The position numbers and the translations under genes are program-made. DNA of 33,017 nucleotides, taken from Pedosphaera sp. Lineage in GTDB: Bacteria > Verrucomicrobiota > Verrucomicrobiia > Limisphaerales > UBA1100. Of the stretch, positions 25,643 to 31,840 are shown piece by piece. Below the pieces are notes generated by a model, which did no database searches, had not been told where the DNA came from, and saw only the letters and a program-made list of their open reading frames with translations. Numbering within the stretch: the stretch's first letter is position 1; every line of letters begins with the position of its first letter. Where the stretch lies: contig SIAW01000023.1 in the NCBI GenBank assembly GCA_009695465.1, forward strand, positions 1 to 33,017. The letters are read 5' to 3'.

Positions 25643-27175
25643 TTACCTGTAGGTAAGCTTGAATTCAGTGATGGCCGCCTTGAGGTCCGCAGCGAGCGCG
25701 TCGCTGATGGCCTTCTCCTTGCGGAGCTTCGCCACCAGATCGGCTTTGCGCGTGGCCAAATAGTCCGCCATCTTGTGCTGGAAATCCTTGATCTTGTCCA
25801 CGGCCACATCGTCGAACAGATTGTTCTGCATGGCCCACAGCACCGCGGCCTGAATCTCCACCGGCGTCGGGTGATACTGGTTCTGTTTGAACAATTCCAC
25901 GATGCGCTTGCCGCGCTCCAGTTGCGCCTGCGTCTTGGCGTCGAGGTCGCTGCCGAATTGCGCGAAGGCCGCCAGCTCGCGGTACTGCGCCAGCTCCAGC
26001 TTGACCTTGCCCGCGACCTGTTTCATCGCCTTGATCTGCGCCGCCGATCCCACGCGGGACACCGACAGACCCACCGAGATGGCCGGGCGTACGCCTTGAT
26101 AGAACAGATCGGTCTCCAGATAAATCTGGCCGTCCGTGATCGAGATGACGTTGGTGGGGATGTACGCGGACACGTCGCCGGCCTGCGTCTCGATGATCGG
26201 CAACGCGGTGAGCGAGCCGTTGCCGTACTTCTCGCCGACGCGCGCGCTGCGTTCGAGCAAGCGGCTGTGCAGATAGAACACGTCGCCCGGATACGCCTCG
26301 CGGCCGGAGGGACGCTTCAACACCAGCGACACTTGCCGGTACGCCACGGCGTGCTTGGAGAGGTCATCAAAAATGATGAGCGCATCCATGCCGTTGTCCA
26401 TGAACCATTCGCCCATCGCCGCGCCGGAGAAGGGCGCCAAAAATTGGTTGGTGGCACTGTCCGACGCCGACGCCGCCACAATGATCGTGTAAGGCATCGC
26501 CCCGGTGCGTTCCAAGTCCGCAATCACGCGCGCGATGTTGGACTGCTTCTGCCCGATCGCCACGTAGATGGAATAGAGCGGGCGGAAATCCTTGTCGCCA
26601 ACCGTCTCATTTTCTTTGTTGAGGCGGGCGTTGTTGATCATCGTGTCAATGCCGATGGTCGTCTTGCCCGTCGCACGGTCGCCGATGATCAACTCGCGCT
26701 GGCCGCGGCCGATCGGGATCATCGCGTCCACTGCCATGATGCCTGTCTGTACCGGCTGATTCACCGGCCGGCGCCGGATGATGCCCGGCGCAATCTTTTC
26801 CACCGGATAAAATTCGGTTGCGACAATCGGCCCTTTGCCATCCAGCGGATGACCCAGCGTGTTGACCACGCGCCCGAGCAGCGACTTGCCCACCGGCACC
26901 TGCAAGAGCTTGCCGGTCGTACGCACCTCTTGACCTTCGCGCACGGAAAGGTAGTCGCCCAGAATGACGGCGCCGACCTCCGTCTCTTCCAAGTTCAACG
27001 CCAGACCCGTCACGCCATTGCCAAAGTCGAGCATCTCATTGGCCATGCAATCGGAGAGGCCCTCGATCTTCGCCACGCCATCGGCGATCTCGCGGACGAC
27101 GCCCACGTTGTGCCGCTGCGCCGTCGTCTTCGCGCCGGTGATCTGTGCTTCGATTTCTTGAAGGAGGTTGCTCAT
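25643..27175 (-). CDS. atpA: F1Fo ATP synthase alpha subunit
   Basis: A 510-residue non-catalytic nucleotide-binding subunit. Walker A is GDRATGKT at 165-172, with Ala where most alphas have Gln (GDRQTGKT). The N-terminal block [28 protein letters not shown] and the arginine-finger region [14 protein letters not shown] are intact. The C-terminal helical domain is of full length. It follows atpH by 21 bases and precedes atpG by 3. Within the complex it alternates with beta, and its N-terminus binds the delta subunit, which is short here. Confidence 0.98.
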
Positions 27176-27196
27176 AGTCTTGGAAATTCTTTTTTG

Positions 27197-27595
27197 CTAC
27201 ACATCAAAGGCTCCGGCCAGCGCATCCAGTCGCGCCCGCACCGAGCCATCCACCACATCACTGCCCACCTGCACGCGCAAGCCGCCCAGCAGCGCTGCGT
27301 CTTGCCGGAACTCCACGCGCAGATCATCCCCGCGCCATTGCCGCAGTCGCGCGGACAAGCCCTGCTGCTGCGCCGTGTCCAGCGCGACAGCACTGGCCAC
27401 GCGGGCCGTGCGACGATTCAACTCCAGCCGCACCAACCGGCGGAAATGCCCCAGCAACACCGTGTAACCGCGCGGCTTCTTCGCCAGCACCAGCGTCACC
27501 ACTTGGCGCACGCGCTGTTCATCCAGCAACCCGCCTTCCACGCACGCGTGGAAAAGCGATTTGGCGTCGTGCCGCGTTTGCTTGTTGCCCTTCAT
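27197..27595 (-). CDS. atpH: F1Fo ATP synthase delta subunit, short form
   Basis: A 132-residue delta/OSCP-type subunit, compared with about 175-185 in most bacteria. The C-terminal part LGGLRVQVGSDVVDGSVRARLDAL matches the conserved end of delta subunits, which contacts the b dimer. The N-terminal six-helix bundle that caps the alpha subunits appears reduced to about 75 residues beginning MKGNKQTRHDAKSLF, CVEGGLLDEQRVRQVV and GYTVLLGHFRRLVRLEL. Similar short delta subunits are known to me from Verrucomicrobial genomes, so this is probably a lineage trait rather than a truncation. The frame has no stop or frameshift, and it sits in its usual place between atpF and atpA. Confidence 0.85.
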   Translation of the reverse strand: MKGNKQTRHDAKSLFHACVEGGLLDEQRVRQVVTLVLAKKPRGYTVLLGHFRRLVRLELNRRTARVASAVALDTAQQQGLSARLRQWRGDDLRVEFRQDAALLGGLRVQVGSDVVDGSVRARLDALAGAFDV

Positions 27596-27614
27596 CGCAA
27601 TGCCGACAACGGCC

Positions 27615-28181
27615 TCAGGCCGCTAATTCCTTGTTGGTCTCTTCGATCAACCGGCGCTGGTCTTCGGCGGTCAACACCTTGCCGGTGACCTTCACGGTGG
27701 TCTCCACCACGAGCCGACCGACTTCCTTCTTGAGCTCCGCCATCATCTTGGCGCGCTCAGCGGCGGCGGCCTCGTGCGCCTTTCGGATAATCTCCACGGC
27801 ATCGGCCTTGGCGCGCTCGATCTGCTCTTCGCGTGCGCGGTCGGCGTGTCCGCGCGCCTCTTCGATGAGTTTGCCCGCCTGCGTGCTCGCCTGTGTGATG
27901 ACTTCCACGTGCGCCTTCTGCGTCTCGGTCAACTGCTCCTGCATGCGCTGCGCGTGGTGCAAGCCCTCGGCGATGCGCGTCTTGCGATCGTGCAACGTCT
28001 GCAACACCTTGTCGTAGGCCAGCTTCTTCATCGCATAAGCGACGATGACAAACAGGATGACCTGCGAGAGGAACAGGCGCGGCTCCCAGCCAAACTGTTT
28101 GGCCAAGGCTTGAACCGGATTATCGCCGCTGGCGGTCGCGTTGCCCGCAGCCGCAGCCAGCATGTACACGTGCGCAATCAT
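27615..28181 (-). CDS. atpF: F1Fo ATP synthase b subunit
   Basis: A 188-residue peripheral-stalk subunit. One membrane helix is at about 37-56 (LFLSQVILFVIVAYAMKKL), preceded by an unusually long N-terminal stretch (AAAAGNATASGDNPVQALA). A long charged, Ala-rich coiled coil follows from about 60 to 165 (HDRKTRIAEGLHHAQR, KLIEEARGHADRAREEQIERA), ending in VTGKVLTAEDQRRLIEETNKEL. There is no Shine-Dalgarno; instead a perfect 9-bp hairpin ends 11 bases upstream of the ATG, which probably limits its expression relative to atpE. Confidence 0.95.
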   Translation of the reverse strand: MIAHVYMLAAAAGNATASGDNPVQALAKQFGWEPRLFLSQVILFVIVAYAMKKLAYDKVLQTLHDRKTRIAEGLHHAQRMQEQLTETQKAHVEVITQASTQAGKLIEEARGHADRAREEQIERAKADAVEIIRKAHEAAAAERAKMMAELKKEVGRLVVETTVKVTGKVLTAEDQRRLIEETNKELAA

Positions 28182-28192
28182 TGTAAAAGGGA

Positions 28193-28215
28193 GACGGGCG
28201 CATCACGCGCCCGTC
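28193..28215 (-). terminator. Perfect GC-rich hairpin between atpE and atpF
   Basis: The arms GACGGGCGC (28193-28201) and GCGCCCGTC (28207-28215) pair over 9 bases around a 5-base loop. In the transcribed minus direction a short T-containing stretch, CTCCCTTTTAC, follows. It lies in the 50-base gap between the atpE stop and the atpF start, so it can act as a partial terminator or as an mRNA-stabilising end that favours c-subunit production, as known for atp operons that need many c subunits. Confidence 0.62.
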
Positions 28216-28231
28216 GTGGTTGTTATGGTTG

Positions 28232-28441
28232 TTATTTTGGGGCTATGAAGATCGCGAAGAACACCACGCCTTCAGCCAATGCGGCGAAGATGATGGCCAT
28301 GTTTCGGATCTCACCAGCGGCACCGGGATTACGCCCGGTAGCCTCGGCGGCTTTCATGCCGATGAGGCCCACGCCAATCGCGGAGCCTAATGCGGCCAAA
28401 CCGATGTGCAAGCTGCCACCTAGCTCAGTTACTGCAAACAT
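28232..28441 (-). CDS. atpE: F1Fo ATP synthase c subunit
   Basis: A 69-residue hairpin of two membrane helices that forms the rotor ring. Helix 1 has the glycine-rich GLAALGSAIGVGLIGMKAAEA, the loop is TGRNPGAAGEIRN, and helix 2 has IIFAALAEGVVFFAIFIA. The ion-carrying carboxylate is Glu57. At the positions of the sodium ligands of I. tartaricus (Gln32, Ser66) this protein has Val24 and Gly58, so a proton-driven ring is expected. The strong GAAAGG ribosome-binding site lies 8 bases before ATG 28441, the best in the operon. A longer reading of this frame to 29275 is an out-of-frame artefact over atpB. Confidence 0.97.
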   Translation of the reverse strand: MFAVTELGGSLHIGLAALGSAIGVGLIGMKAAEATGRNPGAAGEIRNMAIIFAALAEGVVFFAIFIAPK

Positions 28442-28503
28442 ATCTCGTACCTTTCGTTGTATCCGACGCCCCCGCGTGTGCCACGGTCTGACGCCGAAAG
28501 TGT

Positions 28504-29388
28504 TTAGTGCTTGGCGTGCGCGCCCGCGCCTTCGCCTTCCGCAGGGTGGCCTTGGCCGACCATCAGCGAGGTGAACACCGCCGTCAACAGCGTGAACACC
28601 AGCGCCTGCACCAGCCCCACCAGTAATTCCAAAAAGTAAAACGGCAGCGGCAACAGCCAGCCCAGCCACGGATGTTGCAGCATGGATTCCAGAATGTTCT
28701 CGCCCGCGAACACGTTGCCGTAAAGCCGGAAGCTCAACGACACCGGGCGGAACGCGATGGAGATGACCTCGATCAGGCCCACGAAGAAAAAGATGGCCAC
28801 GAAAAACACCCGCATCGCGCCCGTGCCGCCTTGCCCGCCAAAGATGTGCGCCAGAAAACCGCCCACGCCCAGCGCGCGCAGAGACCAGAAGAGCCACAGC
28901 GCGAAGAAGAGCAACGCCATCGCCGAGGTCATGTTGAGGTCGGCATTGCCGCCGCGCATCAACGGCTCGGTGAGATGGAAGTGCCCATTCTCCACCACGC
29001 CCCAGCCCACCGTGCCCACGCCGGGCACCAGCCCAAACCAGTTGGTGAACAGGATGAACAGGAAGAGCGACGCAAAAAACCAGAACGTGCCTTTGATCAG
29101 ATGCGCGCCCAGCAGTCCCTCCAGAAAAAGATGCAGCTCTTCGATGAGCCACTCCCAGAAATTCTGCAGGCCGGTGGGAACGGCGTGGTTGCGGCTCATC
29201 GCCACCTGCGTCACCAAGATCAACAGCGCCGCCACCGTCCACGTCACCACCATGGAATTGGAGATGGCAAACCAATCGTTCTGCCAGAGGATGGTGGCCT
29301 TGGGAGAGAGTTCATGCGACTTGCCATCGGCAGCCGTCGCCAAAGGCGCGCCCACCAATAAAATCCAAAGGATGGCCAACAGTCTCAT
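28504..29388 (-). CDS. atpB: F1Fo ATP synthase a subunit
   Basis: A 294-residue multi-pass membrane subunit that forms the two half-channels. The essential arginine is Arg221 in SFRLYGNVFAGENIL. Helices around GTFWFFASLFLFILFTNWFGLVPG, MALLFFALWLFWSL and LPLPFYFLELLVGLVQALVFTLLTAVF are as expected (segments quoted in part). The N-terminus MRLLAILWILLVGAPLATAADG looks like a cleavable signal peptide, longer than in E. coli; this occurs in several PVC and Bacteroidetes a subunits. The start ATG 29388 is chosen for that reason; a frame extension to 29424 would add 12 residues without a sensible signal. It is the first gene of the operon; no atpI is seen upstream. Confidence 0.96.
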   Translation of the reverse strand: MRLLAILWILLVGAPLATAADGKSHELSPKATILWQNDWFAISNSMVVTWTVAALLILVTQVAMSRNHAVPTGLQNFWEWLIEELHLFLEGLLGAHLIKGTFWFFASLFLFILFTNWFGLVPGVGTVGWGVVENGHFHLTEPLMRGGNADLNMTSAMALLFFALWLFWSLRALGVGGFLAHIFGGQGGTGAMRVFFVAIFFFVGLIEVISIAFRPVSLSFRLYGNVFAGENILESMLQHPWLGWLLPLPFYFLELLVGLVQALVFTLLTAVFTSLMVGQGHPAEGEGAGAHAKH

Positions 29389-29434
29389 GCTTGTCGGGTC
29401 AGCAGTGCCGCGCGTTCTGCACAAAGAAACGCGT

Positions 29435-29581: not shown

Positions 29582-30433
29582 TTAGCCCAGCATCTTGGCC
29601 AACTCATCAGCCTTTGAGCCGCACGCGGCGATGATTTCCTTGATGCGTTCTTCGCTCATGTTGGGATGTTTGCTCTTCACGATTTGAGTGAAATGCTCGT
29701 TCCATGATTCCGGTTGGGCATCGCAAAGCGAGGCGACATAGCTGGCCGGCGCTGGGCAGAGCGCGCTGTCGGGCACGTTCTGGTACATGATGGCACCGGC
29801 CAGATCCTCGGGCAGGTCCCATTCCGAACACACCATCGTGCCCAACTCGGCGTGGTCCCAACCAAAGACTTCCTTTTCCAACGTGTGCAGATCGCCTTCA
29901 CCTTTGGTGCTGGCGGTGTACACGATGCTGTACGCGTCGCCTTTGGAAGCGGCGATGAGCGGCACACTGAGGTCCTGCAAAAATCCAGCGCTGAAACTCA
30001 GGTTGGCCTTGGCGGGCGCGGTGGCCTCGGCGATCTCCTTGGCGAGCACGGCGCGTTTGCCAGCGGTCTTCCAAAATTCCTTGAGCACCATGTACTGCGG
30101 CACTTTGGAGGGCATGGCGGCGCGCGCGCCGATGACCATCACGATGCGTTCCAGCGCGGAATTGCCCATCATGGCGATGGCGTGATCCAGCGAGGTGATG
30201 GGGCAACGCGGCGCGTAAGCGGTGGAGTTGACGGTGCGCATCACGCGTGAGACCAGATCGGCGTCGGTGGACATCACCTGACCGATCTGGTTGTTGGAAC
30301 TGTCGGGATCGCGCAGGCGGCGCAGCGTCTCGAAGATCGCCTTGCGGAATCGCGGCAGCTCGAAGTTGCCCAAGATTTCGCTGAGCCGCGCCTTGGCGTC
30401 GGTGTCGCCGAGGAAAGAGAATTTAGTGGCCAT
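29582..30433 (-). CDS. HDOD-domain signalling protein
   Basis: A 283-residue protein with one HDOD domain, a non-catalytic relative of HD phosphohydrolases used in bacterial signalling. Blocks are FELPRFRKAIFETLRRLRDPDSSNNQIGQVMSTDADLVSRVMRTVNSTAY (quoted in parts), ITSLDHAIAMMGNSALERIVM and FSAGFLQDLSVPLI. The pattern I-x-x-D-x-x-L-x-x-x-V-x-R-x-x-N-S-x-x-Y matches HDOD. The paired His-Asp is replaced by Gln-Asp (LQDLSVP), so no phosphodiesterase is expected. EKEVFGWDHAELGTMVC keeps the later helix. The ATG at 30433 has a good AAGGA ribosome-binding site. It follows the channel gene by 18 bases on the same strand, so the two may be co-transcribed. Confidence 0.88.
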   Translation of the reverse strand: MATKFSFLGDTDAKARLSEILGNFELPRFRKAIFETLRRLRDPDSSNNQIGQVMSTDADLVSRVMRTVNSTAYAPRCPITSLDHAIAMMGNSALERIVMVIGARAAMPSKVPQYMVLKEFWKTAGKRAVLAKEIAEATAPAKANLSFSAGFLQDLSVPLIAASKGDAYSIVYTASTKGEGDLHTLEKEVFGWDHAELGTMVCSEWDLPEDLAGAIMYQNVPDSALCPAPASYVASLCDAQPESWNEHFTQIVKSKHPNMSEERIKEIIAACGSKADELAKMLG

Positions 30434-30451
30434 ACGATCCTTATCAATTCC

Positions 30452-31840
30452 TTATTCGCCGCGACGTCCCAGCAGGTTGCCCAAGATGGTCATCAGACCG
30501 CCCAAGCCGAAATAACCAAAGATGGTCAGCAGGTTGGTCAGGATTTGCGCGCGCGTGGACTTGGGCAGCACGTCGCCAAAACCCAGCGTGGTGGCCGCCA
30601 CCACTGCATAGTAATGCGGCGTGTACCAAGTGCGCACGAGGTCTGGGGGGATGGCGAAGTCTTGATTGATGTTGCTCACGCGCAAGTCCACGCCGTCCCA
30701 GTATTTACTGCTCACGTCGGAGGGCGCGTCCAGTCGCGCTGCGCTGATGAAGTTAACCGTGCCGCTGGGCGCATCGCCCACTTTTTCAAAAGTGGCATTG
30801 CCGGTCTTCTGTACCACGTCGGTCTTTGCCTCGTAGCTGATCGCCACTTTGCCGCCCGAGATGGCTTTCACCTTCGCAGCCACGTCGGCGAAAGTGTCCT
30901 TCTCCACATCGATCTGCACTTCCTTGCCGTTCACGGTGAAGGAATTGGTGGCGGGCGCGAGACCAAAGCCCGCATCCTTGAGCGCAACATCGGTCTTGAT
31001 GCCCGCAGGCTCGCCGTCCATGTGCCAGAAGATGCAGCCGAAGATCGCCACCACGCCCGCCTGCAACATCGCCCAGCGGAAAAGACTGCGGCCGCAGTCG
31101 GAGCTTAGCCACCAGATTTTGTACAAGTAGAAGTGATAGGTGCTCTGCTTCTGGAATTCCTCCAGATAATTCTCGTCCACAATGTGGCGGCGCACGAGGT
31201 ACGCCCCAGCGAAGTCCACGTCGCGGATGTCCGCGCCGATCCAGTGCGCGGTGGCGTAGTTGCGCACGCCGCGCATCTGCACGGCCACCATCGTGGTCTT
31301 GTTGAAGGTGGCGTGATCCAGATTGCACTCGCGCATGTCGCACCCGGTCATGTCCGCCTGCGAGGCGTGCAGATGGCTCAAGTCCGCCTCGAGGAATCGC
31401 GCCTTCTGCAGCTTGGCCAACGAAACATCCGCATGGGCCAGCACAGCGTTGCCGAATGTCGCGCCGGGCAAGCTCGCGCGACGAAGGGTGGCGCGGTTGA
31501 ACTTGGTCTGCCCCAACCCCGCGTTCTTGCCGGAGCACTCGTCCAGATTGGCCTCAATGAAACTCGCGCCCAAAAACTCGCCGTCATCGAGCTTGGCTTG
31601 GAAGAGCGTGGCCTTGTCGAAGATCGCATTCTGGCAAATAGCACCGGCGAAGATGCTGCGGCTCATCTCGCAGCCGGTGAAATCCATCCCCGTCAATTCC
31701 AGATTGGAAAAATCCCTGTTCAGAAAATTAAGCCCACGGGCATTCTTGTAGGAATCCTCCATCGGCTCGCCCGTCTCGATGAACTTCTGCATCGCCGCAA
31801 AAATCTCGTCGGCCGTGTGTTTCGGGGGTTCGGTGCTCAT
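30452..31840 (-). CDS. Pentapeptide-repeat/2TM potassium-channel-like protein with FliD-like insert
   Basis: A 462-residue fusion. Residues 30-215 are pentapeptide repeats (A-D/N-L/F-x-x, for example GMDFTGCEMSRSIFAG, NAIFDKATLFQAKLDD and GASFIEANLDEC), a right-handed quadrilateral helix expected in the cytoplasm. TM1 lies at about 252-274 (LFRWAMLQAGVVAIFGCIFW). The pore helix and filter read YYAVVAATTLGFGD (409-423), with TLGFGD in the place of TVGYGD; TM2 is at 433-456. Between TM1 and the pore is a 135-residue loop, far longer than usual. Its part 300-371 (FTVNGKEVQIDVEKDTFADV, VAISYEAKTDVV, GTVNFISAARLD) resembles the FliD/flagellin-hook IN motif. K+ selectivity is likely but not certain. 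ATG 31840 is preferred; a TTG lies 5 codons upstream. Confidence 0.82.
   Translation of the reverse strand: MSTEPPKHTADEIFAAMQKFIETGEPMEDSYKNARGLNFLNRDFSNLELTGMDFTGCEMSRSIFAGAICQNAIFDKATLFQAKLDDGEFLGASFIEANLDECSGKNAGLGQTKFNRATLRRASLPGATFGNAVLAHADVSLAKLQKARFLEADLSHLHASQADMTGCDMRECNLDHATFNKTTMVAVQMRGVRNYATAHWIGADIRDVDFAGAYLVRRHIVDENYLEEFQKQSTYHFYLYKIWWLSSDCGRSLFRWAMLQAGVVAIFGCIFWHMDGEPAGIKTDVALKDAGFGLAPATNSFTVNGKEVQIDVEKDTFADVAAKVKAISGGKVAISYEAKTDVVQKTGNATFEKVGDAPSGTVNFISAARLDAPSDVSSKYWDGVDLRVSNINQDFAIPPDLVRTWYTPHYYAVVAATTLGFGDVLPKSTRAQILTNLLTIFGYFGLGGLMTILGNLLGRRGE

What the first reader, a model, noticed from the sequence alone, without database searches (positions are those of the whole stretch)
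30452..31840. Potassium-channel-like protein with pentapeptide scaffold and a FliD/flagellin-hook-like domain in the outer loop
The loop between TM1 and the pore helix is about 135 residues, where simple 2TM channels have about 30. Its residues 300-371 read FTVNGKEVQIDVEKDTFADV, then VAISYEAKTDVV, then SGTVNFISAARLD. The same order of blocks (F-T-I-N-G-x-x-I-x-V-D, D-T-L-x-D-V-x-x-K-I-N, V-x-A-S-Y-D-x-x-T-D, T-x-N-F-L-x-A-x-x-L) is seen in FliD/flagellin-hook IN motifs. A filament-type adhesion or self-association fold in the gate-proximal outer loop of a channel that also has a cytoplasmic pentapeptide beta-helix is, to my knowledge, not described. It could sense or bind something outside the membrane and gate ion flow.
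Basis: partly seen in the sequence, partly recalled or inferred. Interest (0 to 1): 0.75.

Follow-up and report, generated by a model that had tools for sequence, protein, structure and literature searches.

The report
Potassium channel wearing flagellar-cap domain
A bacterial potassium-channel gene has, in the loop that sits over the outer mouth of its pore, a domain descended from a repeat of the flagellar cap protein FliD, so a piece of the swimming machinery has been reused as an outer cap on an ion channel.

Summary
The gene at 30452-31840(-) encodes a 462-aa protein: a cytoplasmic pentapeptide-repeat helix, TM1, a loop of about 130 residues, a K+-type pore (TTLGFGD) and TM2. The loop is homologous to the first head repeat of Verrucomicrobiota FliD. 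A FliD-repeat HMM hits all 15 insert-bearing channels (E 7e-13 to 5e-8), none of 12 insert-less channels and none of 1,050 shuffles. Profile-profile E is 2e-17. In the reverse direction, all 39 non-channel loci checked that carry a hit encode FliD. Related channels with an ordinary short loop exist, in family f1 at the same locus (dtxR / channel-HDOD / atpB). Insert-bearers form one clade (89/85) next to an insert-less channel, so the domain was most likely captured once. It is under purifying selection and is kept in two near-complete genomes with no FliF or FliD found, so it does not need a flagellum. The gene is always followed by an HDOD signalling gene, except in the most distant homologue. 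The function (outer cap or sensor on a channel paired with HDOD) is inferred. New variant of a known kind.

The parts
30452..31840 (-). Channel gene, 462 aa: pentapeptide / TM1 / FliD-repeat insert / K+ pore / TM2
   Evidence: orthologues L002-L004
31181..31735 (-). Pentapeptide-repeat beta-helix, about residues 36-220, predicted cytoplasmic
   Evidence: PF00805 1.6e-23; pentapeptide proteins of the PDB, best 2.7e-13
31019..31084 (-). TM1, about residues 253-274
   Evidence: hydropathy peak
30629..31015 (-). Whole extracytoplasmic loop, residues ~276-404, absent or short in related channels
   Evidence: alignment A1
30662..30988 (-). FliD-homologous domain, residues ~285-393 (HMM-aligned core 285-372), corresponding to one whole FliD head repeat R1
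   Evidence: HMM E 7.4e-12 for this protein; hhalign 2e-17, 2.7e-15
30569..30628 (-). Pore helix and selectivity filter TTLGFGD, residues ~405-424
   Evidence: PF07885; position of TTLGFGD
30473..30541 (-). TM2, about residues 434-456
   Evidence: hydropathy
29582..30433 (-). HDOD-domain protein (283 aa), starting 18 bp after the channel's stop; partner gene, next to the channel also in insert-less relatives
   Evidence: PF08668 6.1e-39; pair conserved in all but the most distant homologue

Best explanation
It is a two-TM K+-type channel subunit, probably tetrameric. The N-terminal pentapeptide beta-helix lies in the cytoplasm. The turret between TM1 and the pore helix has been replaced by one complete head repeat (hook-IN-type unit) taken from FliD. 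SHOWN: architecture, homology of the insert to FliD repeat R1, related channels with and without the insert, purifying selection on the insert, fixed pairing with a downstream HDOD gene. BEST-SUPPORTED BUT NOT PROVEN: a single capture inside one clade of the family. INFERRED: four copies of the domain stand as a crown over the outer mouth in the periplasm, in the same position as the extracellular cap of animal K2P channels. There they shield the pore entrance and read out something in the envelope, while the pentapeptide helix docks the HDOD partner in the cytoplasm. Channel opening would then set membrane potential or K+ flux and signal through HDOD. My split: architecture and homology about 0.93, single capture about 0.8, cap-type role tied to HDOD signalling about 0.35.
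For: Domains. Homology to FliD: direct hits in seven genomes; HMM on all 15 insert channels, 0 of 12 insert-less, 0 of 1,050 shuffles; hhalign 2e-17 and 2.7e-15; the insert profile finds FliD widely in the class, including the organism's own FliD at 4.4e-7; 39 of 39 checked non-channel loci with a hit are FliD. Capture: insert-less relatives; in family f1 with and without the insert in the same dtxR/HDOD/atpB setting; channel tree with insert columns removed puts insert-bearers in one clade, 89/85 or 86/82, with insert-less G544 as sister; inserts are one clade (91/88). Constraint: dN below dS in every pair, e.g. dN 0.05 against dS 0.46, and 0.14 against 0.44 in the pair without flagellar markers. 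Partner: channel-HDOD adjacency in every family examined except the most distant homologue G138.
Against: No confident structure: pLDDT 46.7 (insert) and 31.4 (full length), Foldseek E >= 0.4. Pfam's Flagellin_IN (PF07196) is not reported for the insert at E up to 10, although it finds FliD's second repeat in the same genome. No ion conduction, tetramer or HDOD contact has been measured. Gene tree and family labels disagree, so loss or transfer must be added to the simple gain story.
Confidence: 0.6

Rival explanations
1. The insert is an adhesion or self-association module that binds an external ligand and gates the pore directly.
For: FliD-type repeats are exported surface domains; a Verrucomicrobiota protein of at least 2,270 aa carries eight of them after a glycine-rich region, which looks surface-exposed.
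Against: The FliD head region alone is a monomer at pH 8 (PMC5072837). In a diderm the loop faces the periplasm, not the outside of the cell. No ligand evidence.
Confidence: 0.2
2. The insert works with the flagellum: the channel sits near the flagellar export gate or senses its assembly.
For: In genus g313 the channel-HDOD pair lies right next to flhB-flhA, with fliF about 20 kb and fliD about 28 kb away on the same contig. HDOD proteins regulate flagella in Pseudomonas and Xanthomonas (PMC6543031).
Against: Insert-bearing channels persist, under purifying selection, in G026 (94% complete) and G538 (91%), which have no FliF or FliD match; G702 (79% complete) also lacks both. In f1 and f8 the neighbours are dtxR and atpB, not flagellar genes.
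Confidence: 0.12
3. The insert did not come from FliD itself; FliD repeats and the insert both descend from a general secreted module that spread into several proteins.
For: Eight such repeats in a non-FliD protein in G757. In a smaller tree the inserts lie outside both FliD repeat clades.
Against: With wider sampling the inserts fall among FliD R1 units, SH-aLRT 84-88; every other checked hit is FliD.
Confidence: 0.15
4. A passive insertion, tolerated in the turret and without function.
For: The insert evolves faster than the rest in the window's lineage (dN 0.58 against 0.11). Turret loops tolerate insertions (general knowledge).
Against: dN well below dS in every pair; conserved from f1/f8 to f7; not lost in genomes without flagellar markers.
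Confidence: 0.1

Closest known systems
Two-TM K+ channels (Pfam Ion_trans_2, PF07885)
   Same: TM1, pore helix, T-L-G-F-G-D filter, TM2
   Different: Turret of about 130 residues holding a FliD-type domain; cytoplasmic N-terminal pentapeptide helix in place of RCK or cNMP domains
Pentapeptide plus Ion_trans_2 proteins of the same lineage (L005-L014, L114, L070), not named in any library used
   Same: Same order of parts, same HDOD partner; same dtxR/atpB locus in family f1
   Different: They have an ordinary short turret
FliD (flagellar cap) head repeat R1 and Pfam Flagellin_IN (PF07196)
   Same: Sequence homology across one whole repeat unit, boundaries included
   Different: One repeat, no FliD_N or FliD_C, sits in a membrane channel; below Pfam detection
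K2P channel extracellular cap (from general knowledge)
   Same: A domain inserted between TM1 and the first pore helix, standing over the outer mouth
   Different: Helical, eukaryotic, unrelated in sequence; comparison by position only

Membership tests
Two-TM K+ channel (Ion_trans_2) | Pfam Ion_trans_2 over the curated cut-off | tested here: met
   28.2 bits against 22.5
Two-TM K+ channel (Ion_trans_2) | T-x-G-[YF]-G-D filter between two TM segments | tested here: met
   TTLGFGD 417-423; hydrophobic peaks 253-274 and 433-458
Two-TM K+ channel (Ion_trans_2) | Tetramer that conducts K+ | not testable with these tools
   needs electrophysiology or cryo-EM
Pentapeptide-repeat proteins | Tandem A(D/N)LXX repeats, PF00805 over the cut-off | tested here: met
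   1.6e-23, four stretches; similar to designed and natural pentapeptide proteins of the PDB
FliD head repeat / hook-IN superfamily | Significant sequence homology to FliD repeat units | tested here: met
FliD head repeat / hook-IN superfamily | Match to Pfam Flagellin_IN PF07196 | tested here: not met
   no PF07196 hit for the insert or its orthologues at E up to 10; FliD's own second repeat does match
FliD head repeat / hook-IN superfamily | FliD head-domain fold | tested here: inconclusive
   low-confidence model (pLDDT 46.7), Foldseek not significant
FliD protein | FliD_N and FliD_C domains | tested here: not met
   absent from the channel; present in the true FliD proteins L019 and L023

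The most novel reading that the evidence does not exclude
A FliD-derived crown over a K+ channel that, through the pentapeptide helix and the HDOD partner, forms a trans-envelope signalling unit reading the periplasm or cell surface and controlling motility or surface life by ion flux: a sensory ion channel assembled from flagellar parts.
Probability: 0.13. Interest if true: 0.85.

Novelty: new variant of a known kind. Interest (0 to 1): 0.6.

Why it matters
It documents a domain of an exported flagellar protein captured by an ion channel, with related channels before and after the capture still present in living lineages. That makes the effect of a turret domain on channel behaviour directly testable by comparing natural with- and without-insert versions. 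It also defines a conserved pentapeptide-channel plus HDOD gene pair for which no description was found in the papers searched, and shows that FliD head repeats are used outside flagella in Verrucomicrobiota.

Tried and rejected
Foldseek on that model: no hit below E 0.4, uninformative. PDB sequence searches with the insert profile and with a FliD head profile: nothing meaningful; own FliD matches PDB FliD mainly outside the head region. Pfam Flagellin_IN on the insert: no hit. An early hhalign run contained one mis-cut sequence (L107) and was repeated with the correct cut. Donor FliD: not settled; the tree leans to FliD R1 of the order's common type, near f27 and f7, rather than the host's own FliD, with weak support. 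Strictly vertical descent of the channel: a clade of f1 plus f8 is rejected (AU p 0.005) but the HDOD tree does not reject it (p 0.40), so insert loss versus operon transfer is open. Chance or composition: rejected by shuffles. Papers: no description of a FliD domain in an ion channel or of this channel-HDOD pair was found in the library searched.

Full report
WHAT IS THERE. The gene 30452-31840 (minus strand) encodes 462 aa. Residues ~36-220 are a pentapeptide-repeat beta-helix (PF00805 1.6e-23), residues 405-457 match Ion_trans_2 (1.8e-6, over cut-off). Hydropathy gives TM1 at 253-274 and TM2 at about 434-456, with the filter TTLGFGD at 417-423. The charges DCGRSLFRW before TM1 and GRRGE after TM2 place both ends in the cytoplasm, so the long loop is extracytoplasmic (inference, positive-inside rule). 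The loop of ~130 residues holds no cysteine and has net charge -4.

THE LOOP IS HOMOLOGOUS TO FliD. Without any profile, residues ~279-375 hit proteins of 466-608-aa open frames in seven genomes of the same order at 2.6e-8 to 2.6e-6. Representatives are true FliD with FliD_N and FliD_C. FliD of this group has two head repeats, R1 and R2, between FliD_N and FliD_C; R2 matches Pfam Flagellin_IN in the host's own FliD. An HMM of R1 hits all 15 insert-bearing channels (7e-13 to 5e-8), none of 12 insert-less channels and none of 1,050 shuffled inserts. R2 hits fewer and more weakly. Profile-profile comparison gives 2e-17 for R1 and 5e-14 for R2, and 2.7e-15 in an independent build. The match runs over a whole unit, e.g. 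insert ALKDAGFGLAPATNSFTVNGKEVQIDV against FliD ALKDAPFSTAVSAGSFSVNGKQVTIAT. Searching 384 genomes of the class with the insert profile gives matches in 73 genomes, including the host's own FliD at 4.4e-7. All 39 non-channel loci checked are FliD.

HOW IT GOT THERE. Insert-bearing channels were found in 15 genomes of the order: f1 genera g1 and g2, f8 g12, f7 g313 and g315. Related channels of 351-379 aa without insert occur in f1 genera g3-g5, in f138 (G544, 348 aa) and, further away, in G186 and G138. In f1 and f8 the neighbours are the same with or without the insert: dtxR divergent upstream, HDOD and then atpB downstream. With the insert columns left out, the channel tree puts insert-bearers in one clade (89/85; 86/82 without the most distant row), and insert-less G544 is their sister (95/97 or 99/98). 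The inserts are also one clade (91/88). One capture is the simplest reading; support is good but not decisive. The gene tree conflicts with family labels: insert-less f1 channels fall outside, and an f1+f8 clade is rejected with p 0.005, though not by HDOD (p 0.40). Secondary loss or operon transfer must therefore be added. A wider unit tree nests the inserts among R1 units (SH-aLRT 84-88), near FliD of f27 and the second FliD of f7, not near the host's own FliD; the donor is not settled.

IS IT FUNCTIONAL. dN is below dS in every pair for the insert (e.g. 0.05 against 0.46; 0.059 against 0.81), so it is under purifying selection, although in the window's lineage it changes faster than the rest (dN 0.58 against 0.11 to G001). 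G026 (94% complete) and G538 (91%) have no FliF and no FliD match, yet keep the insert, with dN 0.14 against dS 0.44 between them. The insert does not depend on a flagellum. Caution: G538's channel is split by a frame change near TM1.

THE PARTNER. The channel is followed 18 bp later by an HDOD protein (PF08668 6.1e-39). The pair is kept in f1, f7, f8, f138 and in distant G186, but not seen beside the tandem channels of G138. In f7 g313 the pair sits convergent to flhB-flhA. HDOD proteins SadB and GsmR affect motility or flagellar genes in other bacteria (PMC6543031). This suggests, but does not show, signalling from the channel through HDOD.

MECHANISM. Shown: parts, homology, variation between relatives, constraint, pairing. 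Inferred: tetramer; a crown of four FliD-type domains over the outer mouth in the periplasm; pentapeptide helix as the docking surface for HDOD. Self-association by the domain is not favoured, because the FliD head region alone is a monomer at pH 8 (PMC5072837). A structural cap or sensor role is my best guess (about 0.35); the exact signal is unknown.

LIMITS. The fold is not confirmed: models were made from two sequences only and are low-confidence. The PDB searches found no solved relative of the insert. Genomes are mostly metagenome assemblies, so absences are provisional. Literature was searched only in an open-access library.

Noticed in passing
L161:2169-8981 (G757:C56, minus strand): A protein of at least 2,270 aa (open frame 2,499) with a long glycine-rich region followed by eight FliD-type head repeats (R1,R1,R1,R2-like, twice); FliD repeats reused in what looks like a surface protein.
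   Followed up: partly
window 29582-31840 and L157, L167, L174: Pentapeptide channel plus HDOD gene pair conserved across families of the phylum in different neighbourhoods (dtxR/atpB, flhB-flhA, or near a kinase/cyclase protein in G544).
   Followed up: yes
L173:8885-10311 (G538): Channel reading frame broken near TM1 (N- and C-parts in different frames): assembly error or decay.
   Followed up: no
L071 (G138): Two tandem insert-less pentapeptide channels of 333-360 aa side by side.
   Followed up: no
L032 (own FliD, G000:C108): FliD of family f1 carries an extra segment of about 80 residues between repeat R2 and FliD_C (from about AAEAITTAEAHKFKTGEAIKIFSPGT), absent from FliD of most other families sampled.
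   Followed up: no
genus g313 genomes (e.g. G687, G684): Two FliD and two FliF genes in several genomes, hinting at two flagellar systems.
   Followed up: no
window 25643-29424 (-): F-type ATP synthase genes (atpB, atpA and others) directly downstream of the channel-HDOD pair; same order in related genomes.
   Followed up: partly
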